Source of the DNA: a virus
Strand: one strand, 5' to 3'
Length of the DNA stretch: 26,011 bases
IMG/VR virus record: IMGVR_UViG_3300027797_000122
Coordinates: 1-26,011 of that record
Of this stretch, positions 6,349-23,193 are shown in pieces. The notes under the pieces are model-generated. The model was not told where the DNA came from. It made no database searches and was given only the letters and a program-made list of their open reading frames with translations. The translations under genes and the position numbers were made by a program. Each line of letters starts with the position of its first letter. Position 1 is the first letter of the stretch.

Positions 6349-7131
6349 ATGAGACTGGACAAATACTACGAATTCGTGCAGGCCGACTTCGAGGCCATAA
6401 GCTCATTCCACATAAAGGACGAGCTCAACCAAAAGATTTGGGAAAACGGCGACCTCGACGACGAGGTCAGGAGAAACCTACTTATGATAGGACAGGACTT
6501 CTACGCGGAATCCGACCTGAAAGCCGACGTGGTCGACGTGGTACTATGTGGATCACTCTGCAACTACAACTGGTCAGAGAGATATTCAGACTACGATTTA
6601 CACGTGATAATACACTACAAAGACATAGACGATGATCTCGAGCTTGCTGAGAAAGTCTGTGACCTAAGTAAGAAGATATGGAACCTCAAACACGACATCA
6701 AAATCGCAGGATACGAAGTCGAGGTGATGATACAGGACGAGGACGATATGAACGATGCCATAAAAGGTGGCAGAATGGGAGGAGTCTACTCACTGATGAA
6801 GGACAAATGGATAAGAAAGCCAGAGAGAAAGGACTTCGTACCAGACGAGAAGCTCATCAGGTCAAAAGCAGAAACCGTTATGTCTCAGATAGACGAACTC
6901 GAGGAGCAACTAAACGAGGATAAATACGAAGAATTCGTCAAAAAACTCGACGCGGTATGGAAGAGAATCAAAGACTTCAGAAAGTCGGGCCTCGATAGCG
7001 AGAGTGGTGAATTCTCGATAGGAAACCTCGTGTTCAAGCTTCTCAGGAGAAACGGATATACTGACAAAGTAATGAAGATGAAGAGAGTGGCCTACGACAG
7101 ACAGTTCGAGAAAAAACAGAACGAGTTATGA
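6349..7131 (+). CDS. Nucleotidyltransferase-fold protein with capsid-targeting-like N-terminus
   Basis: This 260-residue protein carries the polymerase-beta-type nucleotidyltransferase signature: CGS at residues 67-69, then after 11 residues D81-Y-D83 in YSDYDLHVII, with a possible third acidic residue at E123/E125 in GYEVEVMIQ. Such enzymes transfer NMP groups to RNA, protein or small molecules; the substrate here is unknown. The C-terminal ~100 residues are charged and helical (EELEEQLNEDKYEEF and following). The N-terminus MRLDKYYEFVQADFEA resembles the T4 internal-protein targeting peptide (MKTYQEFIAEA), so the protein may be packaged in the head and injected. It is first in a coupled run, overlapping the next gene by ATGA. 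Confidence 0.65.
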   Translation: MRLDKYYEFVQADFEAISSFHIKDELNQKIWENGDLDDEVRRNLLMIGQDFYAESDLKADVVDVVLCGSLCNYNWSERYSDYDLHVIIHYKDIDDDLELAEKVCDLSKKIWNLKHDIKIAGYEVEVMIQDEDDMNDAIKGGRMGGVYSLMKDKWIRKPERKDFVPDEKLIRSKAETVMSQIDELEEQLNEDKYEEFVKKLDAVWKRIKDFRKSGLDSESGEFSIGNLVFKLLRRNGYTDKVMKMKRVAYDRQFEKKQNEL

Positions 7132-7829
7132 AGATAAAGATTTCCGAAGTAGAAGAGATATTCAAAGAGGTCTTCCAAGAAGAGGAGGGAGTTGTTACAA
7201 CCGTAGAAACTCTCTACGAAAAACCGAAGACAAAAGACGGATTCCTGAAGCTGGTTATTTCCATACACGGACTATCAACTACAGACTCGAACATAATACA
7301 CACAAAGTTCATATTCAAAACTGACCTCGAAAAACGAGAGATAATCGAGAAAGAATTCATCTACCTATACGACATAAACTGTGTCTACCACAAAGTAGAG
7401 TTCGACAACACGATAGACCTGAAGGAAAAGATAGAGGGAATAATCGAGTCTAACAACTTCGGTGAGGACTTAATAATACTCTCCGACTTCATCGAGGCAC
7501 CTGCTATGTTCCTCAACTACTATATGAAGCGTGCCAAAATTGAGGACTACTCGATATTCGACGTGGAGTACGAACCGAAGTTCAAGACGACTCCGTGCGG
7601 AGACACGACATTCGACTTCAAGATAAACATCAACAACAACTACAACGTGGAACTTTCGATATACAAAGTTGACAGGGAAGACGACGATGACATCGACCAC
7701 TACAAGTTCCAGTTCAGGTTTATGGACGAGATAAAGACCTTCGAGACCGAAGACCTCAAGAACATACACTACTTCATCGGATCACACCTGGCGAAGATGC
7801 TCGACGACAAACTGAAGAGTGCACGATGA
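7128..7829 (+). CDS. Acidic protein of unknown function in the coupled run
   Basis: This 233-residue protein has no recognised family. It is rich in Asp, Glu, Lys and Ile, with an acidic insertion near residues 188-195 (REDDDDIDHY) and mixed alpha/beta predicted character. The start overlaps the previous stop (ATGA) and its own stop overlaps the next start the same way, so it is translationally coupled between the nucleotidyltransferase-like and ADP-ribosyltransferase-like genes. Its N-terminus, MKIKISEVEEIFKEVF, fits the capsid-targeting pattern only weakly. It may work with its neighbours, but nothing in the sequence names a function. Confidence 0.65.
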   Translation: MKIKISEVEEIFKEVFQEEEGVVTTVETLYEKPKTKDGFLKLVISIHGLSTTDSNIIHTKFIFKTDLEKREIIEKEFIYLYDINCVYHKVEFDNTIDLKEKIEGIIESNNFGEDLIILSDFIEAPAMFLNYYMKRAKIEDYSIFDVEYEPKFKTTPCGDTTFDFKININNNYNVELSIYKVDREDDDDIDHYKFQFRFMDEIKTFETEDLKNIHYFIGSHLAKMLDDKLKSAR

Positions 7830-8308
7830 GAAGAATAAGGCTTTTCGAGGAGTTCAACTACAACGAAGCAGGCGCAGCCGTGGTCTATCACGGAACTCAG
7901 GACGAACACGAGTTCAACAACAGAGGCAACCTCGCCAACGGAACCTTCTTCTCGACAAGCTCCAACGAGGCAAGTTCTTACGGAAAACATATCTATAGGA
8001 TTGAACTCAAAAAGGATTTGAACATACTAGACACAAACAAAATCGAAGATTGTCAGAAGATAATCGACGAATTTGGACCATTAGAAGATCCGTATTATAA
8101 TTCCGACGAACCAGAATACTTTGTGAACACAGCGGAACAACTCTGGCACCATAGTGATAGTTGGTCTCCAATCGAGGCAGACGAACAACTCATGTCCTGG
8201 CTAGATGGTAACTACGACGGAGTGTGGGTATATGAAGGTGGCACTCGCAACCTGTTACTATTCAAACCAGTGGCAGAAAAGATTGACAAAACCTTTAAAG
8301 TGAAATAA
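7826..8308 (+). CDS. Putative ADP-ribosyltransferase (ART fold, H-Y type)
   Basis: This 160-residue protein has the layout of small ART domains seen in phage polyvalent proteins. YHGT at 21-24 supplies the first-motif His (H22). GTFFSTSSNEASSYG at 39-53 supplies the second-motif aromatic (Y52). A C-terminal NYDGVWVY...RNLLLFKP at 129-148 matches the last strand pair. The third catalytic position is usually Glu; here it would be N142 or the nearby E137, so activity is uncertain. Only ~18 residues precede the fold, MRRIRLFEEFNYNEAG, which resembles a T4-type capsid-targeting peptide ending in an E-A junction. T4 Alt is a known head-packaged, injected ART, and the analogy is inference. The start overlaps the upstream stop by 4 bases. 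The second half uses more A/T-ending codons. Confidence 0.6.
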   Translation: MRRIRLFEEFNYNEAGAAVVYHGTQDEHEFNNRGNLANGTFFSTSSNEASSYGKHIYRIELKKDLNILDTNKIEDCQKIIDEFGPLEDPYYNSDEPEYFVNTAEQLWHHSDSWSPIEADEQLMSWLDGNYDGVWVYEGGTRNLLLFKPVAEKIDKTFKVK

Positions 8309-8321: not shown

Positions 8322-9020
8322 ATGAAACTTCATAAATTCTACGAATTCATAAAAGAGGCTGCAGAGTGGGACCAATCCGCAATAGACGAGATGCTTCTAC
8401 CAATCAAAGACCTCGGTTTTGAAGTACAGATATCAGAACCAAATCCTGTAACGGATGCGTCGTCACATCTCTACAAAAAGATGGTTCGTGAAATAACAAT
8501 ATGGATCAAAAACCAGTACGAGGATAAACTAAATTCCGACGTAAATACTTTCATATTCAAAGATGGTGGACAATGGGATAGAATCTACACAAACGACACA
8601 AAAGTTTTTGATTTGATGATTGAGTTCGGAAACCTCGGTCACAGACTTAGTGAGGACGGTACAGCGATAAATATATTATGGCAGGACTCCACAATGAAAC
8701 TAAAACTATTGCATGTGGTAGACGACACAACGTCCACAGACAAAGAGATTGAACTGAAAAACACATTCGCTGCACTCAGGAACAAATTCATGAGAACAAG
8801 TACGGACTTTTCGAGAGGTATGCTATGGGAACCTCGTACCGTAGAGGGGGTTACAGATAGTTTCTCTATAAGATGTAGTGGTACTTTAGGCGCTTTCACA
8901 AATAGAAAATGGTCCGCTTTCGTCAAAGGTATCGACCTATCGAATTTCAAAGTAACGTTCGAGAAGGACGAGGAAGACAAAGATGTGGTAACAGTGCATA
9001 TATCATTACAGAAAGACTAA
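8322..9020 (+). CDS. Unknown protein with strong T4-type capsid-targeting N-terminus
   Basis: This 232-residue protein is not recognised beyond its first residues. MKLHKFYEFIKEAAEWD matches the T4 internal-protein targeting sequence (MKTYQEFIAEA) closely. FIKE followed by A fits the gp21 cleavage rule, hydrophobic-x-Glu then small residue, so cleavage after E12 is predicted. The rest is alpha/beta with no visible catalytic motif; a Trp/Ile-rich segment (REITIWIKNQYEDKL) lies near residues 57-70. Packaging into the prohead core and injection are inferred from the N-terminus and from a gp21-like protease being encoded in the same window. Confidence 0.65.
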   Translation: MKLHKFYEFIKEAAEWDQSAIDEMLLPIKDLGFEVQISEPNPVTDASSHLYKKMVREITIWIKNQYEDKLNSDVNTFIFKDGGQWDRIYTNDTKVFDLMIEFGNLGHRLSEDGTAINILWQDSTMKLKLLHVVDDTTSTDKEIELKNTFAALRNKFMRTSTDFSRGMLWEPRTVEGVTDSFSIRCSGTLGAFTNRKWSAFVKGIDLSNFKVTFEKDEEDKDVVTVHISLQKD

Positions 9021-11880: not shown

Positions 11881-12369
11881 TTACCTTATTCCAAGTATCG
11901 CTTCCAAACCTGTCCTCTGTATACCACGTAACTCGTCTCTAACTTTCATAAGTATCTTTCCGAGGTGGTTCTGACCCTTTCCTTCACAAACTCCCCAGAA
12001 GGTGTCGTTCCAGCTATTTCCCTCTACGATTTCTTCTTCTCCAGTATCAAGTAACATCTCTGCGAGTTTTTCATCTTTGAATTTCTCACGGACTGCCCAG
12101 TTCATAAACTCGAGTTTTTTGTCGTCCCAGTCTTTCCTGACGGAAATCTTCCTACCCAACTTCTTCACCGTTCCTGGATGTGCTATTTTAGCAACCATCT
12201 CACGGAAGTCGATAGGCGTGTACTGACTTCCATTCATAAACTGAGGTCCATTACACTTCATCGCAACGTAGTAGTGCTCTACAGATGGGTACACTATACC
12301 CTGATGTACTATTTCACACGTGTAGAAGTTTGACAGGAAACCGTACCTGCCGTCGAATTTTTGTATCAT
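11881..12369 (-). CDS. NADAR family protein (YbiA-like)
   Basis: This 162-residue protein has the NADAR core: GRYGFLSNFY at residues 7-16, YPSVEHYYVAMK at 27-38, a DW..KL..M segment near 80-89, IVEGNSWNDTFWG at 114-126 and NHLGK at 134-138. Family members include E. coli YbiA, linked to N-glycoside hydrolysis of a riboflavin-pathway intermediate, and DarT-associated proteins that remove ADP-ribose from guanine in DNA. Which reaction applies here is not decidable from sequence. In a phage, reversal of DNA ADP-ribosylation by host defence or NAD-derivative metabolism are both plausible. It starts 4 bases after the preceding small gene and is followed by the Dam gene. Confidence 0.85.
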   Translation of the reverse strand: MIQKFDGRYGFLSNFYTCEIVHQGIVYPSVEHYYVAMKCNGPQFMNGSQYTPIDFREMVAKIAHPGTVKKLGRKISVRKDWDDKKLEFMNWAVREKFKDEKLAEMLLDTGEEEIVEGNSWNDTFWGVCEGKGQNHLGKILMKVRDELRGIQRTGLEAILGIR

Positions 12370-13164: not shown

Positions 13165-14109
13165 TTATTTTACGTTTACCAACGTGTTACTGCCGTTACC
13201 AAGAACCGTGCTTGAGTTACGACCATCCCATTTCTCGACTTTCTTGTACTCTACGTACAATGGTGTAAGTTTTTGTTGTGTAAGCTCCATCGCCTTAGCC
13301 TTAGCAGATGCGTTGATTACCGTTTCCGCAGAGTCTGCCTTTGCTACAGCAATCTTACGTTGTCCATCTGCTTGTGCCGCTATTGCTTGTTGCTTAGAAG
13401 CCTCGGCTTGTTGGACTGATCTAGTTTTTGCAATGATAGCTTCTTGTAAAGGCTCTGGTGGAACGATGTTGGATCTCATTTGAGATACAGCAAACCATTT
13501 TGATAGACGAATGTTACACTCGTTCACGATAGCAGTTTCGAATGCCTGACGGTGTCCAAAGATAGAGTCGACCTCCCAGGTGTTGGCAACGTCGTTCACT
13601 GCACCTACAATCGCATTCTTTAGCCATCCTTGCTCAACATCTTTGATAGGTAAACGAAGGTTCACGAACATATCTCCAACCGCCATAGGTTTCAAAGAGT
13701 AGTTGAATGATGGTTTGATGTCTGCCGGGAATCCACCTTTTGTGATTACCTGTTGCTGGTCGAACTCGATGTGTTGCTGGAACGTCGGGAACTCGTAAAG
13801 GTTCTCTGTCCAGGTATTATAAACAACCCAACCTGTTTTGTACTGGTATTTCGACACACCTCTGTTGTCACCAGTAAGGTTCACTTTAATTCCGACGTGA
13901 CCTGCGTCTACTCTTTCGATTGCGAACGGCTGGATGAACGCGAAGATAATTAGTCCGACTCCTCCTACGATACCGATTGTGACCGACTTCCGACCTTCGG
14001 CCTTCTGTGTAGTGTTGTTGTAACCCGCATCCTGGATCGTCCTGATTCCTGTGATGATTTTGTAGGCTGCGAAGCCTAAGGCCGCTAGGACCAAAATTGT
14101 AGTTATCAT
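13165..14109 (-). CDS. SPFH/band-7 (prohibitin-like) membrane protein
   Basis: This 314-residue protein has two N-terminal hydrophobic segments (residues ~2-20 and ~44-63, TIGIVGGVGLIIFAFIQPF). FAIERVDAGHVGIKV follows, the typical entry strand of band-7/prohibitin domains, and the SPFH domain runs to about residue 215. A helical, Ala/Gln/Lys-rich stretch (AEASKQQAIAAQADGQRKIAVAKAD) is the usual SPFH coiled coil. Bacterial relatives (HflK/HflC, flotillins) form membrane microdomain assemblies and control the FtsH protease. In a phage it could alter the host membrane, superinfection or lysis; this is inference. The stop is followed by a strong terminator, and the start abuts the stop of a small two-helix membrane protein, so the two are coupled. 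Confidence 0.85.
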   Translation of the reverse strand: MITTILVLAALGFAAYKIITGIRTIQDAGYNNTTQKAEGRKSVTIGIVGGVGLIIFAFIQPFAIERVDAGHVGIKVNLTGDNRGVSKYQYKTGWVVYNTWTENLYEFPTFQQHIEFDQQQVITKGGFPADIKPSFNYSLKPMAVGDMFVNLRLPIKDVEQGWLKNAIVGAVNDVANTWEVDSIFGHRQAFETAIVNECNIRLSKWFAVSQMRSNIVPPEPLQEAIIAKTRSVQQAEASKQQAIAAQADGQRKIAVAKADSAETVINASAKAKAMELTQQKLTPLYVEYKKVEKWDGRNSSTVLGNGSNTLVNVK

Positions 14110-15262: not shown

Positions 15263-16290
15263 AGTACCATTATATTTATTATTAGGTATCCGTTGTCCAT
15301 ATAGCCAGCACCCATCAGTCCGTGTTTTTCAACCAGTTGATTTATATCCTGTAACTCACTTAGAACTTCAGATGGTTTCCAACCCTCGAGGTCGAAGTAA
15401 AGTGACCATTTACCATCTTCCTCTTCGATACCAGAGAATGTATCTAACTTTTTCGCGTCTTTTACCAGGTCATTGTAACTATCCGGATAATCTTTATCAC
15501 CTTTCACTGCCTCCTGTAGGTCTCTTTTAGTCGGAAGTGAATCCCAGTCTACCTCACAGCTAGCCTTACAAAGCTGCTCGAGATGTGTTATGTTCTGAAC
15601 CTCCTTACCGGTGTGTTCGTTCATATATCCAACAGAAACGTTGGTACACTCAGGTATAAGACCCATAAGCATAGCAGAGTCTGTGAATATACCCGTTGGG
15701 TCCGGAGCCATCTGCATACCGAGTCCATTGTATTGTTCACATAGTGCGTTTGCGAATTCATCAGAACAACATTGTCTACCGAGTTGTTTTGTTATTATTG
15801 ATCCAGTACCTCTTCTATCGAATGATACACATCTTACTATCTCACTAACGTGTTCGGTCTCCTCAAAACCGTTCGCCAACTTCTTAGATCCTATACCTCC
15901 TCTTTCTTCACCTATGAAAAAGTAGTAAAGGCCAGGAACCTTTTTCTCCATCATATAAAGCATCACTGTTACGCCGGCCTTATCGTCTGCACCGAGTATG
16001 GTTTCACCACCGGTTGTGATGTTCTCAATACCATTATCGATAGTTGAGTATCTCTCTGTTTTGTTCTGTCTGTGATCCGCAGTGTCGAGGTGTGACGTGA
16101 ACATAGTAGTTGGTCTATCACCTATTATGCGGTAGTAATTACCGAACTGGTCGTTCATAAGTTCTGGAAGAAGGCCAAGTACCTCTTCCTCGTGACCGTG
16201 TGGGTAGGTTTTGGTAGTCAAGGAAAGGAATGTATCTCTAACTTTTAGGTAGTCACGTTCGTACTCTCTATCTTCTATTCGTTTTCTCAT
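15259..16290 (-). CDS. Zinc peptidase of the M20/M28 (PepT/glutamyl aminopeptidase-like) type
   Basis: This 343-residue protein shows all the metal and catalytic landmarks of the clan: TSHLDT (H67, D69), GADDKAG (D102), GEERGGIG (E128-E129), FDRRG (D158) and NEHTG (H226), which supports an active dinuclear zinc exopeptidase. The usual family length is 350-420, so it is compact. After residue ~245 comes an extra ~95-residue C-terminal region (GKWSLYFDLEGWKPSEVL and following) of unknown role. Substrate is unknown. It is the middle gene of a three-gene operon with 4-base overlaps on both sides, and both neighbours have capsid-targeting-like N-termini. The peptidase itself does not. It may act on host peptides or on head-packaged proteins; both are inference. 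Confidence 0.8.
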   Translation of the reverse strand: MRKRIEDREYERDYLKVRDTFLSLTTKTYPHGHEEEVLGLLPELMNDQFGNYYRIIGDRPTTMFTSHLDTADHRQNKTERYSTIDNGIENITTGGETILGADDKAGVTVMLYMMEKKVPGLYYFFIGEERGGIGSKKLANGFEETEHVSEIVRCVSFDRRGTGSIITKQLGRQCCSDEFANALCEQYNGLGMQMAPDPTGIFTDSAMLMGLIPECTNVSVGYMNEHTGKEVQNITHLEQLCKASCEVDWDSLPTKRDLQEAVKGDKDYPDSYNDLVKDAKKLDTFSGIEEEDGKWSLYFDLEGWKPSEVLSELQDINQLVEKHGLMGAGYMDNGYLIINIMVL

Positions 16291-16763
16291 AATGTAAATC
16301 TAATGTTTCCTGGTGAGAAATGTATCTTACCTGAATTATTTTCATCGACGACAATCTCGTTCGATTTGACCGAAACGAAGTAGCTCTTAACGAAATCAAC
16401 AGTATCAATCTCCTCTTTGTGTGTCTCTGCCATACGTCTCAGCGTCATTGCCACTTCAACAAGTACGTCCTTAGTAACTATGTCGTCTTTGTTTGTTTTG
16501 ACGACTGCCACGTATTCACCTTTACATAACCATATATCGTTCGTACTGGGTGCATATCCACCAAGATCGAGTGCATGCTTTCCAACGTAGAGACGTGTAA
16601 TCTTTTTCGAAGAATCAATATCTTTCGCAATCCACACGTTGAATATTTCACCGGTTGAGGAAGGAATGAGCTTGTGTCTGACCTTACCGTCGAACTTCTT
16701 CAGGTCAACTTTAACTGGATTGACGTAATTCTCGAAGTATGCGGAGTATCTCTTAATAATCAT
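16287..16763 (-). CDS. Unknown protein with capsid-targeting-like N-terminus, first gene of the peptidase operon
   Basis: This 158-residue protein starts MIIKRYSAYFENYVNP, a basic-aromatic N-terminus similar in spacing to the other targeting-like starts. The body is alpha/beta (NVWIAKDIDSSKKITRLYVG; EYVAVVKTNKDDIV), with no recognised family. It ends in a 4-base overlap with the peptidase start. The ATG is preceded by ATATATA-ACGT, the same 4-base spacing as at 6349 and 8322. Confidence 0.6.
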   Translation of the reverse strand: MIIKRYSAYFENYVNPVKVDLKKFDGKVRHKLIPSSTGEIFNVWIAKDIDSSKKITRLYVGKHALDLGGYAPSTNDIWLCKGEYVAVVKTNKDDIVTKDVLVEVAMTLRRMAETHKEEIDTVDFVKSYFVSVKSNEIVVDENNSGKIHFSPGNIRFTL

Positions 16764-16826: not shown

Positions 16827-18521
16827 TTAGTTCAGCAATTGAGCTGCATCTTTTACACTGATAGTCATGAATTGTTTTTGTGGGAACCATCCAACTTCAG
16901 CAACAGCGTACCTAGATCTCAAGAGCATTCTTGGAGCGAAAGTCGCCTCAGAAATAACTGAGATAGATTGAGCCATAAGGTAAGGAACGAAGATGATACC
17001 TGGTTGATCAGCGTTGTTTTTCCTACCAAGGACGATTCTGTTGTCGTTGTATCTCATGTAAGGATCAACATAGATAGCGATGTCGCCTATTGAACCTACA
17101 GGGTAAAGTTGACCTTGACCGTTGAGTTTAGATTTCACAGGGTTGATTGTGTAACCAGCGATGTCTTGAAGAGCTGCAGCAAGACCTCCGTTTGTGATAA
17201 GGTATTGAGCAGGACCTACACGACCCTCAGTAGCGATAAAGTTAGAAGCATGAGCAATTTTCGTGATCAATTTTCTTTGTACAGCGTGAGTAGTCTCACC
17301 ACCAGGTGCGTTAGTAGTAGCGTAAGCAGTATCAAGGTCGAAGATAGTGTGACCAGTGATAGTAGCAGTACCAGCGAAAGCAGGTGCAGATGTTCTGTTG
17401 AGGTCACCCATTTCGAAAATCTTAGCAACGATTTGCTTAGAGATTGTTTGGGAAAGCTCGTTCACAAGGATAGATTCCATCTTTTGTACGATGTCCATAC
17501 CTGTGTTAGCTTTGATATCCTCGATTTCAGTTCTTCTGAGTGCTGAAGATACTTCGATAGTACCAACTGCGATAGTCTTAGAAGAAATCTTAGGTCCGAT
17601 TACACCAGCGTAGCTATCATCATCATCTTGACGTGACATTGGATAATCACCAGATTGAATGTTAGATGTCCAGTTTGCAGAGAAACCTGGGATGTGATCC
17701 TCAAGTGCAGAAATCAACTGAATCTCTTGTGGCGTTACAGATGCAGTACCAATGTACGTAATCTGGTCAGACATAGAAGCTGTTGGGTTGAATGTGTTTT
17801 TAGTTTGATCGTAAACGTAAAGTGTGTTAGCACTTGAACCAGCAACGTTAGCTTGTCTCCATGCTCTGAACATTGGATAACCGTCTACCCTTGAGAAACC
17901 TAAGAACTCAAGTTTTTTGTACTTAGTAGTAGCAATTCCTGCAGCAGATTCAGTAGTCTTTAGATCTGAGCTACCTTGTATGTTATCTACGAAAAGTCTT
18001 CCTTCAGCAAGACCGCCAGTTGTAAGAACTGCAGAACCAATGAATTTAGCAACAGTATCTTTAACTTCTTGAAGATCCGTAGCACCCAATTTTACTTTGA
18101 ATACTTGTGGTCTTTCGTCTGTTCCGTTTGTAGATCTTGAATCATCGTATTGGAAATCGATGTAAAGAAGGTCGATTTTCGGACCTGGTGATGGTTTAAC
18201 AGCTACGAGGTCAAGACCGATAGTCTGAGCAGCGATTTTCATCGCAACTGGAAGAAGGTTTTGTCCTACGTCACCTGAACCAGCAACTGGTGAAAGTACG
18301 TTACCTGTTCTTGGGTTACCTGCGAGGTCACCCACAACTGGATTCAATACAGCGCCCATACCTCCTACGTTAGAAGCATTTACGTACGCATTTTCGTTGA
18401 TTGAGTGGAACTCAGCGTATTCCGCCATCCATTCTACTCTATCACCTGTGACACCCATATTCTCGAGAACTGGTGCCCATTTTTTAGTGGCTTTCGCCTT
18501 GTCTATCCTAATGTGTGACAT
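16827..18521 (-). CDS. 23: Major capsid protein, T4 gp23-like
   Basis: This 564-residue protein is close to T4 gp23 (521) in length. The N-terminus (KATKKWAPVLENMGV, then WMAEYAEFHSINE) parallels gp23's leader (LLNKWKPLLEGEG...). A gp21-type cleavage site is visible at I41-N42-E43 followed by NAYVNASNVGGMGAV, matching gp23's LTE-A...YNATN. Later segments fit the HK97-fold capsid core: a long N-arm, SAALRRTEIEDIKANTGMDIVQKMESILVNELSQTISKQIVAKI as the spine region, and IFVPYLMAQSISVISEATFAPRMLLRSRYAV near the end. The gene lies directly downstream of the protease-scaffold gene, as in T4, and ends at a strong terminator with its own TATATA box upstream. Codons are more T-rich than those of its neighbours. 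Confidence 0.9.
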   Translation of the reverse strand: MSHIRIDKAKATKKWAPVLENMGVTGDRVEWMAEYAEFHSINENAYVNASNVGGMGAVLNPVVGDLAGNPRTGNVLSPVAGSGDVGQNLLPVAMKIAAQTIGLDLVAVKPSPGPKIDLLYIDFQYDDSRSTNGTDERPQVFKVKLGATDLQEVKDTVAKFIGSAVLTTGGLAEGRLFVDNIQGSSDLKTTESAAGIATTKYKKLEFLGFSRVDGYPMFRAWRQANVAGSSANTLYVYDQTKNTFNPTASMSDQITYIGTASVTPQEIQLISALEDHIPGFSANWTSNIQSGDYPMSRQDDDDSYAGVIGPKISSKTIAVGTIEVSSALRRTEIEDIKANTGMDIVQKMESILVNELSQTISKQIVAKIFEMGDLNRTSAPAFAGTATITGHTIFDLDTAYATTNAPGGETTHAVQRKLITKIAHASNFIATEGRVGPAQYLITNGGLAAALQDIAGYTINPVKSKLNGQGQLYPVGSIGDIAIYVDPYMRYNDNRIVLGRKNNADQPGIIFVPYLMAQSISVISEATFAPRMLLRSRYAVAEVGWFPQKQFMTISVKDAAQLLN

Positions 18522-18608: not shown

Positions 18609-20777
18609 TTACACGTTTTTGAACCTCTCCATTATAGCGGTCATCTCGCCATCAGAAAGTTTATCCTCTTGGATGATCGAGTCGTGAGAAACGAGCTTCT
18701 TAGTGGATTCGTTCTTTTTGAGATTTCTAGTAGACCAGAAGTGCTCGATTTGAGATTCAGTCATCAACATTTCCACAGGGTAAAGTCTAGCTTGTGAAAG
18801 TATAGACTTCTTAGCTGATTCGTTGAACTGATTCCAGATAGCCTTGGTGTTTTCAGGCATCATCCTGATAACTCTCTCTTCAAGAGATTCAGATTTTGTA
18901 GAAAGCGCCTCGGAGATGAGTGTGAGTACATCCTTCGGTGTGAAGTAACTTCTTTCGTTTATGTGAAGTTTAACTGTATCTTGCTCTTCGTTAGTGAGTG
19001 CATAGTAGCTGTCTACTTGTGATTTTGACAAGAACTTAAGGAAGTTCAGGTCAGATGTCTCAGAAACTTTACGTTTTTTAGCTTCTTCGATCAATATGTC
19101 GATTTGAGATGAAAGCTCAGACTCGTTGTGTCCAGATACCTCACGGTTCCAGTTGTCAGCGTCATCGTCGTCATCATCATTGTCGTCGTCTTCGTGTTTA
19201 ATATGTACTGCCTCAGGAGAAACCTCAGCGATACCCGCAGGTCCACAGACAGCATCATCATCGTCATCATCCATATTATGTGCCATATCAGCATCGTCAT
19301 CGTCATCATCCTCTACAGCTTCAAAACCGTGTGCATTAAGTGATGGGAAGTTATCCTCAACAGATTCGAAAATTTTTCCACCATTGAGTTTCTCAGTAAT
19401 CATACCTGAGTAAGAGATAGATTTGTCGAGGTTCTCAGCGATATACTCAGAATATGCGATGTTGTCATCAAGATGCTCAGCAAGGTATTCAGAGTAAGCA
19501 ATGTTACCTTCTACGTGCTCAGCAAGGTACTCAGAGTAAGCGATAGAATTATCTACGTGCTCTGCGATGTATTCAGAATAAGCGATGTTTTTATCCAAAT
19601 TCTCAGCGATATACTCAGAATATGCGATGTTCTTATCCAAATTCTCAGCGATGTACTCAGAATATGCGATGTTTTTATCCAAATTCTCAGCAAGATACTC
19701 AGAATAAGAAATGTTCTTATCTAGGTTTTCTGCGATATACTCAGAGTAAGAAATGTTCTTATCTAGGTTCTCGGCAACATACTCAGAATATGCGATGTTT
19801 TTGTCAAGATTCTCAGCAACATACTCAGAATATGCGATGTTTTTGTCAAGATTCTCAGCAAGGTACTCAGAATAGTTTACTGCTTTCTCAAGGCTCTCAG
19901 CTAGGTAGTCGTTGTGTTTGATAAGCTTGTCAGTAGTCTCTTTCAAAGACTTGTTCTCGTTTACCATAATCTGAACTTTCTCAGCTAGGTAGTCTAGGTA
20001 TTTCACAACTTGTGAATTTGTCTTGTTGAGCTCCTCATAGTACTCGAGAAGTTGTTCAAGCCTCTTAGGGTTCATGTTGCCCTTTGTAATGGCACTCTTA
20101 ACCTCCTTCTTAGTAGAAGCCAACTCCTTGACCAAATACTGAGAGTAGTCAGTCAACTGTTGTTTAGTAACGTACTCGTTTTTGTTCATGTTGAATAAAT
20201 CGTTGATTTTTGACTCATCGGACATCTCATATATCCTAAAGTTAGATTTCGGGTCAGCGAAGCCAAGCGACTCATTAAGAACTTTAACACTCATTTTAGC
20301 CGATGCAAATCCTGGATCTGCAACAATGTCGTAAGTGAATAATTTCTTTAATGAGACCGTACCATCAGACTCTGTTATACCTGCGGCGCGTGAAGAAACA
20401 AAAAGAGGACATCCGTCGTCGACGAGTGCCTTTGCTTCTTTACCCCAATAAGTACTTAACAGTCTGATTTCGCCCGCAACTAGGTTCTGCTCCTTGATAT
20501 AATCAGCCTTAGTGATTATGTGTGAAGCCCTAGAAAGAGAAGTATCGAAAACATCCGGGTGGTCGAACTCGCCGTAAACGACTCCGAGGTTATTCATCCT
20601 CTCGTTCATCTCGCCAAGCGCAGGAAGGAACCTATCAGCAGTGTACACTCTCTCATTTCTGTTCTTTATATCGAACTCAGTGAATGTTCCGTTTAATACG
20701 TAATCCTTCTTACCAGTCCCGCCACTTTCCCTCACAAGGGAATTAGTAGAGTTTTCTACAATCAATACTGGTTTCAT
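18609..20777 (-). CDS. 21: Prohead protease (gp21-like) fused to a repeat-bearing core/scaffold protein
   Basis: This protein has 722 residues. Residues ~25-165 match T4 gp21: IKNRNERVY (38-45), GEFDHP (69-74, H73 catalytic), VSSRAAG (127-133, Ser nucleophile at S128/S129) and TYDIVADPGF. T4 gp21 is only 212 residues. Here ~550 more follow: a helical region (~200-290), 11 tandem 14-residue repeats of the form YSEY(L/V/I)AENLDKNIA, acidic Asp runs (DDDDDDADM; DDNDDDDDDAD), and a ~130-residue helical C-terminus. A helical, acidic, repeat-rich protein next to the capsid gene suits a gp22-type assembly core, so protease and scaffold appear to be one polyprotein. The order portal-protease/scaffold-capsid follows T4. 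A TATATATAT box lies 29 bases upstream. Confidence 0.85.
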   Translation of the reverse strand: MKPVLIVENSTNSLVRESGGTGKKDYVLNGTFTEFDIKNRNERVYTADRFLPALGEMNERMNNLGVVYGEFDHPDVFDTSLSRASHIITKADYIKEQNLVAGEIRLLSTYWGKEAKALVDDGCPLFVSSRAAGITESDGTVSLKKLFTYDIVADPGFASAKMSVKVLNESLGFADPKSNFRIYEMSDESKINDLFNMNKNEYVTKQQLTDYSQYLVKELASTKKEVKSAITKGNMNPKRLEQLLEYYEELNKTNSQVVKYLDYLAEKVQIMVNENKSLKETTDKLIKHNDYLAESLEKAVNYSEYLAENLDKNIAYSEYVAENLDKNIAYSEYVAENLDKNISYSEYIAENLDKNISYSEYLAENLDKNIAYSEYIAENLDKNIAYSEYIAENLDKNIAYSEYIAEHVDNSIAYSEYLAEHVEGNIAYSEYLAEHLDDNIAYSEYIAENLDKSISYSGMITEKLNGGKIFESVEDNFPSLNAHGFEAVEDDDDDDADMAHNMDDDDDDAVCGPAGIAEVSPEAVHIKHEDDDNDDDDDDADNWNREVSGHNESELSSQIDILIEEAKKRKVSETSDLNFLKFLSKSQVDSYYALTNEEQDTVKLHINERSYFTPKDVLTLISEALSTKSESLEERVIRMMPENTKAIWNQFNESAKKSILSQARLYPVEMLMTESQIEHFWSTRNLKKNESTKKLVSHDSIIQEDKLSDGEMTAIMERFKNV
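19413..19874 (-). repeat. Eleven tandem 42-base (14-residue) repeats in the scaffold region
   Basis: The 462 bases hold exactly 11 units of YSEY(L/V/I)AE(N/H)(L/V)(D/E)xxI(A/S) with no spacers. Degenerate units flank them (HNDYLAESLEKAVN before, YSGMITEKLNG after). Fourteen residues is two heptads, fitting a regular helical rod. Neighbouring units are nearly identical in DNA, so copy number probably varies between related phages. Confidence 0.9.
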
Positions 20778-20911: not shown

Positions 20912-21298
20912 ATGATAACAACAAGGGAAATACCCGTAAAGATTACAGACCACAATTACCAGTACTACGACGACCTGGGCTACGACACCACACTCGGCGA
21001 AACTATAGTAATACCTGTGGAACTGCTACCAAAAGGATCACACTACAAAATAACCTGTAAGTGCGATGGCTGCGGCATTGAGAAGCAAGTAATCTACAAA
21101 AATTACCTAAGATACGGGAATAACTTCGGTGAATACTACTGCAGAAAGTGTTCAGAACACAAAAGGATAAAAACGCTAAGAAAGAACTTCGGCGTAGACT
21201 ACCCAATACAAAACAAAGGAGTACTGGGTAAAATGAAGAAAACAATAATGGAGAAGTACGGCGTAGACAACATCTCCAAAAAAGAAAAAAAGAAATGA
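20912..21298 (+). CDS. Zinc-finger protein, possibly a truncated homing-endonuclease-like protein
   Basis: This 128-residue protein has a zinc-binding arrangement CKCDGC (C49, C51, C54) and CRKC (C77, C80). Two copies of a (F/Y)GVDxxxxxK-type motif follow (NFGVDYPIQN, KYGVDNISKK). The KYGVxNxSxx motif with a leading zinc ribbon is common in free-standing phage endonucleases, where a nuclease domain usually follows. Here the protein stops right after KYGVDNISKKEKKK, and its last bases overlap the RNase R start (ATGA), so the nuclease part seems lost. It may now be a DNA- or RNA-binding protein coupled to RNase R. This is inference from motif style only. Confidence 0.55.
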   Translation: MITTREIPVKITDHNYQYYDDLGYDTTLGETIVIPVELLPKGSHYKITCKCDGCGIEKQVIYKNYLRYGNNFGEYYCRKCSEHKRIKTLRKNFGVDYPIQNKGVLGKMKKTIMEKYGVDNISKKEKKK

Positions 21299-23193
21299 GT
21301 AAATACACAGAGGGCGACACGATAGAAGCCCAGATAGAGTTCGCCGGATCAGGCAACGCAACAATCAAAATCGACGAAAGAGAGTTCTTCGTACACAAAA
21401 AGAAGACCGCAAATGCCCTGCACCTGGATAAGGTCAGGGCAGTTCTGTTCAAAGGAGAACGAAAAATGGAAGCAAAAGTCGTAGATGTTCTCGAAAGACA
21501 CAAGACAACATTCGTAGGAACAGCACAGGTCGGAGCGAACCACACATTCGTAATACCAGATAGTTCCAAGATGGTCGTAGACTTCTTCATAAAAGGAAAC
21601 CACGAGGCACAGAACGGACAGAAAGTCATCGTAGAGATGATAGACTGGGAAAAGGAAAGGAAATCACCAAGAGGCAAAATCACCAAAGTTCTCGGACTGA
21701 AAGGAGAAAACGAGACAGAGATGAACGCCATTATGTACGAGTACAACCTACCAATAGACTTCCCACAAGAAGTACTAAACGAAGCCGAGCTAATATCCGA
21801 CGTGATTCCAGAATCCGAAATCAAAAACAGAAGAGACATAAGATCATGGACCACCATCGGTATTGATCCACACGACTCGAAAGACGCAGACGACACAATC
21901 GGAATGCACTTCGAAAACGGAAAGAGACTAATATCCATAAACATAGCAGACGTATCACACTACGTCAGACCAGGCAGTGAACTCGATAAAGAGGCATACA
22001 AAAGGTCTAGCTCCGTTTATTTAGTAGACAGATGTGTACCTATGATACCACACAAACTATCAAACGGAATATGCTCACTCAAATCCGGAAGTGACAAGCT
22101 ATGCTACTCAGTAATCGTAGAACTGAACAACGACGGAAGAATCGAAGACAGCTGGTTCGGAAGAACTGTCGTCAGAGTCGACAAAGACTACTCATACGAA
22201 ATGGCACAAGAGGTCATCGAGAGAGGAACTGCCGAGGTAGACACCGAGAAGGTAATACTCGAACTCGACAGACTCGCCAAAAAGATGAGGAAACGAAGAA
22301 TGAACGGCGGTTCTATGGAAATCGGCGGAGTAGAGGTGAAGTTCAAGCTAGACGGAGACGGAAAGAAACCAGTCGGTGTCTACCTAAAAGAACAGAAAGA
22401 TGCGAACCACCTCATAGAGGAGTATATGCTTCTCGCAAACAGAGAGGTCGCAAGATTCATCAAATCGAGACACCTTCCGTGTGTCAACAGAATACACGAA
22501 GAACCAGGAGAAGAGAAACTTGAACACGTGAAGACATTCATCGCCGGACTCGGATATATGATCAACTACGGAAGTACCGCCGAAAAAACAAAACTCGCAA
22601 TCAACCAACTGATGAGAGACTCGAAGGGCACACCAGAGGAGAACATCATAACAACACTGGTGATAAGAGCACAACAGAAAGCGAAGTACTCTACAAAAAA
22701 CATCGGACACTATGGTCTCGGTTTCGAGAACTACTCACACTTCACCTCACCAATCAGAAGGTATAGTGACATATTGGCACACAGGTTATTGTCTAAGGCA
22801 CTGAACGCACAAGGATATAACAAAGAAGTAAACCATAGTGAACTGGATAAGCAGTGCGAGTGGATCTCCAAACAAGAGATGGTTGCTACAAAGGCACAGA
22901 GAGACTCCGTCAAATACAAACAGGCAGAGTACCTACAGGACAGGATCGGACAGGTTTTCGACGGAGTCGTTTCAGGCGTTCTCGAAAGAGGAATATATGT
23001 AGAGCTCACAGAAAGTAAATGTGAGGGAATGATAAGGATATCAGAGATGGGTGGAAAGTGGACAGCATACCCAGACAAATATGCAGTTATGAACGAGTTC
23101 GGCGAGACGATTCGATTAGGGGATCCAATCAAAATCGTAATAAAATCGGTAGACTTAGAAAAGAAACAGATTGACTTCATAAAATTCAACTAA
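21295..23193 (+). CDS. rnr: Exoribonuclease R (RNase II/RNB family)
   Basis: This 632-residue protein contains a cold-shock-type OB region (~1-135, with KVVDVLERHKTTFVG and GKITKVLG), the RNB catalytic domain (~175-515) and a C-terminal S1 domain (~540-630, GQVFDGVVSGVLERGIYVEL). The metal-binding aspartates are present with RNase II spacing: D191, D197, D199, D200 in IDPHDSKDADDTI. HFTSPIRRYSDILAHR at 482-497 carries the conserved arginines. E. coli RNase R has 813 residues; this one lacks the N-terminal extension and the basic C-terminal tail. The family degrades RNA 3' to 5', including structured RNA, and in bacteria works with tmRNA on nonstop mRNAs. The gene is coupled to the zinc-finger gene and followed 2 bases later by an unknown gene. 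Confidence 0.9.
   Translation: MSKYTEGDTIEAQIEFAGSGNATIKIDEREFFVHKKKTANALHLDKVRAVLFKGERKMEAKVVDVLERHKTTFVGTAQVGANHTFVIPDSSKMVVDFFIKGNHEAQNGQKVIVEMIDWEKERKSPRGKITKVLGLKGENETEMNAIMYEYNLPIDFPQEVLNEAELISDVIPESEIKNRRDIRSWTTIGIDPHDSKDADDTIGMHFENGKRLISINIADVSHYVRPGSELDKEAYKRSSSVYLVDRCVPMIPHKLSNGICSLKSGSDKLCYSVIVELNNDGRIEDSWFGRTVVRVDKDYSYEMAQEVIERGTAEVDTEKVILELDRLAKKMRKRRMNGGSMEIGGVEVKFKLDGDGKKPVGVYLKEQKDANHLIEEYMLLANREVARFIKSRHLPCVNRIHEEPGEEKLEHVKTFIAGLGYMINYGSTAEKTKLAINQLMRDSKGTPEENIITTLVIRAQQKAKYSTKNIGHYGLGFENYSHFTSPIRRYSDILAHRLLSKALNAQGYNKEVNHSELDKQCEWISKQEMVATKAQRDSVKYKQAEYLQDRIGQVFDGVVSGVLERGIYVELTESKCEGMIRISEMGGKWTAYPDKYAVMNEFGETIRLGDPIKIVIKSVDLEKKQIDFIKFN

What the first reader, a model, noticed from the sequence alone, without database searches (positions are those of the whole stretch)
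7826..8308. Short ADP-ribosyltransferase-like protein with a packaging-type N-terminus: possible Alt analogue
The ART landmarks YHGT, FFSTSSNEASSYG and YDG...NLLLF start right after an 18-residue leader ending in E-A, a plausible gp21 cut site. T4 Alt is a packaged ART that modifies host RNA polymerase on entry. The third catalytic residue is not a clear Glu, so target chemistry may differ.
Basis: partly seen in the sequence, partly recalled or inferred. Interest (0 to 1): 0.65.

Follow-up and report, generated by a model that had tools for sequence, protein, structure and literature searches.

The report
Packaging-tagged ADP-ribosyltransferase of a huge phage
A giant bacterial virus carries a small enzyme of the ADP-ribosyltransferase fold that bears the same kind of short 'pack me in the head' tag as the injected proteins of phage T4, so it is probably delivered into the bacterium with the viral DNA to modify a host protein at the start of infection.

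Summary
Confirmed as a real, conserved 160-aa gene (7826-8308 +) of a 600-700 kb-class huge phage. It is an ADP-ribosyltransferase (ART) by fold. Pfam ART-PolyVal matches at E 9e-6, and NCBIfam AcrIF11 matches all three orthologues (best 9e-5), both below curated cut-offs. Its AlphaFold model's best PDB match is the anti-CRISPR ART AcrIF11 (6kyf), followed almost only by ARTs. It belongs with the histidine-type (H-Y-D/AcrIF11-like) ARTs, not with T4 Alt, which is Arg-Ser-Glu. The likely acid is the invariant Asp131 of YDG, as in polyvalent-protein ARTs. The leader is supported as packaging-type. The T4 capsid-targeting pattern M[KR]x-hydrophobic-xx-aromatic hits only IPI, IPII and IPIII among 66 T4 ORFs. 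It matches this ART and its relatives, and is enriched at gene starts across the clade (29% vs 2.7% of M[KR] sites). The proposed E14|A15 cut is not conserved; LFE8 or FEE9 is likelier. Best reading: a head-packaged, injected ART, an Alt analogue by delivery but an AcrIF11/PolyVal relative by enzyme. Packaging, activity and target remain untested.

The parts
7826..8308 (+). 160-aa single-domain ADP-ribosyltransferase-fold protein with N-terminal leader
   Evidence: start codon overlaps the upstream stop (ATGA, 7826-7829)
7826..7852 (+). Leader MRRIRLFEE (residues 1-9): T4 capsid-targeting pattern (hydrophobic at 4, Phe at 7) ending in hydrophobic-x-Glu; best candidate cut LFE8|E or FEE9|F
   Evidence: PMC9026906 for the T4 residues; residues 1-8 disordered in the model
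7865..7870 (+).
7886..7897 (+). YHGT (21-24), ART strand 1, His22 = nicotinamide-binding His by family alignment
   Evidence: invariant Y-H-G
7940..7960 (+). GTFFSTS (39-45), ART strand 2; Phe41 at the Tyr position of H-Y-[EDQ] ARTs
8213..8221 (+). YDG (130-132); Asp131 = likely acid of the H-Y-D active site
   Evidence: invariant D-G; PMC5512222; one distant homologue (L112) has Ser
8234..8251 (+). EGGTRN (137-142): hairpin with invariant Glu137, Gly139 and Asn142; Asn142 where classical ARTs have the catalytic Glu
6349..7131 (+). Operon neighbour with a similar leader (MRLDKYYEF) and a nucleotidyltransferase-like GS...DxD motif
   Evidence: motif by eye; phrog_36119
7128..7829 (+). Upstream partner gene, no family, stop overlaps the ART start
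8322..9020 (+). Downstream gene with a similar leader (MKLHKFYEFIKEA), unknown function
16287..16763 (-). Leader-bearing gene (MIIKRYSAYFEN) next to the capsid gene
16827..18521 (-). Major capsid protein; conserved propeptide site SINE|N
18609..20777 (-). Prohead (head maturation) protease, T4 gp21 / phrog_207 type, fused to a repeat-rich acidic scaffold-like part

Best explanation
The gene encodes a single-domain mono-ADP-ribosyltransferase of the histidine (diphtheria-toxin/PARP-like, H-Y-D or AcrIF11-like) type. It carries a 9-14 residue T4-type capsid-targeting leader. Late in infection the leader docks the protein on the prohead core, and the gp21-type protease probably trims it after a hydrophobic-x-Glu site. 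The mature ART is packed with the DNA and injected. In the new host it uses NAD+ to put ADP-ribose on a host protein, either a defence component (as AcrIF11 does on Csy1) or the transcription machinery (as Alt does). Shown by computation: gene, ART fold, leader type, protease and capsid cleavage motif in the same cluster. Inferred: packaging, trimming, injection, catalysis (His22, Asp131), target.
For: ART-PolyVal E 9e-6 / 1.5e-5 / 7.5e-5. AcrIF11 model matched by all three orthologues, best 9.2e-5. AlphaFold model best PDB match 6kyf (AcrIF11) E 2e-4, prob 1.00, then MbcT, RhsP2, SAIP, diphtheria toxin and tankyrase, all ARTs; viral library led by ART-PolyVal proteins. A second huge-phage family (194 aa, 23 contigs) is homologous (hhalign 96%, E 8e-9); its confident model (pLDDT 87) also finds 6kyf and MbcT among its top three, and its leader is disordered. 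Leader: T4-derived pattern at 92/313 M[KR] gene starts vs 19/696 internal sites, and in T4 only IPI-III. Clade leader on at least 27 unrelated bodies. Hydrophobic-x-Glu in residues 6-17 of 91% of leader proteins vs 38% (52% of M[KR]) of other starts. Leader genes densest 0-4 kb after the capsid gene.
Against: Both family models score below their curated cut-offs (27 vs 31.2; 22.4 vs 50 bits). Model confidence of the window protein is moderate (pLDDT 71, pTM 0.68). The strand-2 Tyr is Phe and the classical Glu is Asn, so it could be a weak enzyme or a pseudoenzyme; one distant homologue has Ser for Asp131. No virion proteomics exists for this clade in what I could reach. Two distant homologues (L116, L117) lack the leader. 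Exact cut site is not conserved. The 194-aa family's fold match to 6kyf is weak (E 0.05).
Confidence: 0.62

Rival explanations
1. Active ART of the AcrIF11/PolyVal type made inside the infected cell (early or late) and not packaged; the leader serves another purpose, such as localisation or core-independent regulation.
For: AcrIF11 itself is made in the cell (PMC12421852); no proteomics here; leader function is inferred from T4 only.
Against: The leader matches the T4 positions known to direct packaging (PMC9026906), sits on many unrelated proteins and is densest beside the capsid gene.
Confidence: 0.2
2. Packaged pseudoenzyme: the ART fold is kept as a binding module, without NAD+ chemistry.
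For: Asn at the classical Glu place and Phe at the Tyr place.
Against: Tyr-His-Gly and Asp131-Gly are invariant across distant relatives. AcrIF11Pae1 is active with H-F-H-D and lost CRISPR inhibition in D115A (PMC12421852). Strong purifying selection on the body.
Confidence: 0.13
3. True T4 Alt orthologue acting on host RNA polymerase alpha subunit.
For: ART with a short leader in a phage with a T4-like head cluster.
Against: Alt is R-S-E class (PMC5512222); here strand 1 carries His, not Arg. Length 160 aa. No Alt/VIP2 family match in Pfam, PHROGs or NCBIfam.
Confidence: 0.03

Closest known systems
AcrIF11 (anti-CRISPR ADP-ribosyltransferase; 6KYF, NF052490)
   Same: Best PDB fold match; profile match in all three orthologues over residues 20-125; small single-domain phage ART; His in strand 1, Phe at the strand-2 Tyr position, acidic residue near strand 5.
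   Different: Below the family cut-off (22.4 vs 50 bits); no packaging leader is described for AcrIF11; Csy1 target not tested; the classical Glu loop holds Glu137/Asn142 here.
ART-PolyVal / Tox-ART-HYD2 domains of polyvalent proteins (PF18760)
   Same: Profile match E 9e-6; His-Gly-Thr, strand 2 and Asp-Gly motif align; predicted to be injected with phage DNA.
   Different: Stand-alone, not part of a large multidomain protein; 27 bits vs cut-off 31.2; Tyr replaced by Phe.
T4 Alt
   Same: ART with a short N-terminal leader in a phage with T4-type portal, capsid and prohead protease; likely injected.
   Different: Alt is R-S-E class; different size and leader; not homologous at family level here.
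T4 internal proteins IPI/IPII/IPIII (capsid-targeting sequence)
   Same: Leader has hydrophobic residue 4 and aromatic residue 7 (the T4 targeting positions), basic residue 2, and hydrophobic-x-Glu afterwards.
   Different: Cargo is an enzyme; exact cut residue not conserved among orthologues.

Membership tests
ART superfamily | ART fold (split beta-sheet NAD-binding core) | tested here: met
   AlphaFold/Foldseek: top PDB hits nearly all ARTs; viral library likewise
ART superfamily | NAD+ binding and ADP-ribosyl transfer | not testable with these tools
   needs protein
ART-PolyVal (PF18760) | Score over the curated cut-off | tested here: not met
   27, 26.3 and 24 bits vs 31.2, although E 9e-6 to 7.5e-5
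ART-PolyVal (PF18760) | H (strand 1) - Y (strand 2) - D (strand 5) | tested here: inconclusive
   H22 and D131 present, Tyr replaced by Phe41; two known polyvalent (vRNAP-fused) members also have Phe there
ART-PolyVal (PF18760) | Part of a multidomain polyvalent protein | tested here: not met
   160 aa, single domain
AcrIF11 family (NF052490) | Score over the equivalog cut-off | tested here: not met
   22.4 bits vs 50, E 1.8e-4
AcrIF11 family (NF052490) | Modifies Csy1 of type I-F CRISPR | not testable with these tools
   needs assay
T4 Alt / Alt-VIP2 clade | R-S-E active site | tested here: not met
   His22 in strand 1; no Glu at strand-5 place
T4 Alt / Alt-VIP2 clade | Packaged in the head and injected | not testable with these tools
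   leader consistent; needs proteomics
T4-type capsid-targeting sequence | Short N-terminal leader with hydrophobic/aromatic residues 4 and 7 | tested here: met
   I4/F7, I4/F7, V4/F7 in the orthologues; pattern selects only IPI-III in 66 T4 ORFs
T4-type capsid-targeting sequence | Prohead-protease site hydrophobic-x-Glu after the leader | tested here: inconclusive
   LFE8, LFE8, FDE9 available, but no single site fits the L/I-x-E motif in all three
T4-type capsid-targeting sequence | Directs the protein into the head | not testable with these tools
   needs leader-reporter assay

The most novel reading that the evidence does not exclude
Huge phages of the 600-735 kb class use a T4-type capsid-targeting leader as a general address label for an arsenal of injected proteins. 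Among these is an AcrIF11-like ART that would be a virion-delivered, enzymatic anti-defence protein (for example an anti-CRISPR acting before any phage gene is expressed).
Probability: 0.25. Interest if true: 0.8.

Novelty: new variant of a known kind. Interest (0 to 1): 0.55.

Why it matters
For the largest known phages almost nothing is known about which proteins enter the cell with the DNA. A leader that can be recognised from sequence alone would give a testable list of injected proteins, and this ART would be one of its few members with a predictable enzyme chemistry. It joins two known ideas, T4's packaged Alt and the anti-CRISPR ART AcrIF11, in one small protein.

Tried and rejected
Pairing of the ART with the NADAR (ADP-ribose hydrolase-like) gene at 11881-12369 as a modification/reversal pair: rejected as specific, because NADAR is in 45 of 50 records of the clade while this ART is in three contigs. 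T4 Alt membership: rejected on the strand-1 residue. Relatives in annotated phages, plasmids and bacterial genomes by sequence: none convincing. PDB relatives by sequence: none. First leader pattern (tuned on this clade) missed the T4 internal proteins; a pattern built on the T4 targeting residues was used instead. Rfam and tRNA scans of the window: nothing. PADLOC: no defence match for the ART.

Full report
What is there. The window is a 26-kb virus record whose major capsid protein is 72-73% identical to those of 635-642 kb huge phages and 52% identical to that of the 735 kb phage. The ART has two orthologues at 89% and 80% identity, in the same gene order, in contigs of 249 and 118 kb. It is under purifying selection: in the body, window against L001, 4% of nonsynonymous sites differ against 69% of synonymous sites, while the leader changes faster (14-26% of nonsynonymous sites). 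Its start codon overlaps the upstream stop (ATGA), so it is probably translated with its neighbours.

Fold and family. Pfam ART-PolyVal matches all three orthologues (E 9e-6, 1.5e-5, 7.5e-5), just under its curated cut-off. The NCBIfam model of the anti-CRISPR ADP-ribosyltransferase AcrIF11 also matches all three (best 9.2e-5; window 1.8e-4, 22.4 bits against a cut-off of 50). An AlphaFold model from 18 sequences (pLDDT 71, pTM 0.68) has as best PDB match 6kyf (E 2e-4, probability 1.00), identified as AcrIF11Pae1 in PMC12421852. MbcT, RhsP2, SAIP, diphtheria toxin and tankyrase follow. The viral library returns ART-PolyVal proteins. Profile searches in related phages found a second family of 193-197 aa proteins in 23 contigs. 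It is homologous to the window family by profile comparison (95.8%, E 8e-9), and its confident model (pLDDT 87) has AcrIF11 and MbcT among its top three PDB matches, weakly. The ART fold is therefore well supported.

Active site. Y21-H22-G23, A49 and D131-G132 are invariant across the window family, the second-family members aligned there and three reference ART-PolyVal domains from Dickeya phage JA11, Roseovarius podovirus 1 and a Dinoroseobacter phage. The polyvalent-protein ARTs are described as H (strand 1), Y (strand 2), D (strand 5), and T4 Alt as R-S-E (PMC5512222). AcrIF11Pae1 is described as H-F-H-D, with D115 needed for activity (PMC12421852). Here the set is His22, Phe41, Asp131. 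At the place of the classical Glu there is Asn142, invariant in both huge-phage families, with an invariant Glu137 five residues earlier. One distant homologue (L112) has Ser there, so a degenerate or differently working enzyme is not excluded.

Leader. In T4, ten residues of IPIII suffice for packaging. Positions 4 and 7 matter for targeting and positions 8 and 10 for trimming; an Asp at 10 blocks trimming but not targeting; the protease motif is L/I-x-E (PMC9026906). The pattern M[KR]-x-hydrophobic-x-x-aromatic, built on those positions, selects exactly IPI, IPII and IPIII among 66 ORFs of a 49-kb T4 stretch, and none of 84 ORFs of Roseovarius podovirus 1. It fits the window ART, both orthologues and members of the second family. 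Across the fetched huge-phage loci it is found at 92 of 313 gene starts with M[KR] against 19 of 696 internal M[KR] sites (odds ratio 15; related sequences inflate the significance). A clade-tuned pattern gives 102 of 1412 gene starts against 10 of 6911 internal Met and occurs on at least 27 unrelated bodies. Of these leader proteins 91% have hydrophobic-x-Glu within residues 6-17, against 38% of other gene starts (52% of those with M[KR]) and 17-27% further along the same proteins. Leader genes are densest in the 4 kb after the capsid gene start (38 of 197 genes). The capsid protein carries a conserved SINE|N (31 of 32), and the window encodes a gp21-type protease (phrog_207 E 4e-31). The packaging reading of the leader is therefore strong by sequence, and untested by experiment.

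Cut site. LFE8, LFE8 and FDE9 are alternatives. No single site fits a strict L/I-x-E in all three. Given the T4 finding that Asp blocks trimming but not packaging, trimming may vary between these phages.

How it most likely works. The ART is made late, docks in the prohead through the leader, is trimmed, packed and injected, and ADP-ribosylates a host protein. Head-packaged phage ARTs are predicted to be common (PMC9503650, PMC5512222). The closest experimentally known enzyme is AcrIF11, which suggests a defence target. Alt suggests the transcription machinery. The evidence does not choose between them.

Companions. Three genes of the + strand cluster carry such leaders: 6349-7131 (with a nucleotidyltransferase-like motif seen by eye), the ART, and 8322-9020; of these only the ART fits the strict T4-derived pattern. 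The NADAR gene at 11881-12369 is a clade core gene (45 of 50 records) and is not tied to this ART.

Verdict. A real, conserved ART with a T4-type packaging leader: an Alt analogue in delivery, an AcrIF11/PolyVal relative in enzyme class. Novelty lies in the combination, and in the leader as a readable address label in the largest phages.

Noticed in passing
6349-7131 (+), and orthologues in L001, L002, L039: Leader-bearing protein with a nucleotidyltransferase-like motif (GS...DYD) and no known function (phrog_36119); a second candidate injected enzyme beside the ART.
   Followed up: partly
18609-20777 (-): Prohead protease fused to about ten tandem 14-aa repeats (YSEYIAENLDKNI) and an acidic tail, apparently a protease-scaffold fusion.
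   Followed up: no
11881-12369 (-): NADAR-domain gene (E 6.5e-29) kept in almost all related huge phages (45 of 50 records), often near the capsid gene; why it is a core gene is unexplained.
   Followed up: partly
Loci L004-L119, N-termini of at least 27 unrelated protein families: T4-like leader (for example MKYLKLFESF, MKLKKYNNYLNED) on many unrelated proteins, predicting a large set of head-packaged proteins in these huge phages.
   Followed up: partly
13165-14109 (-); 21295-23193 (+): SPFH/Band 7 membrane protein, conserved in L001 and L002 but without a leader, and an RNase R-like gene (by eye) in the window.
   Followed up: no
L112:3001-3585: Member of the second ART family with YSG instead of YDG; possible degenerate copy.
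   Followed up: no
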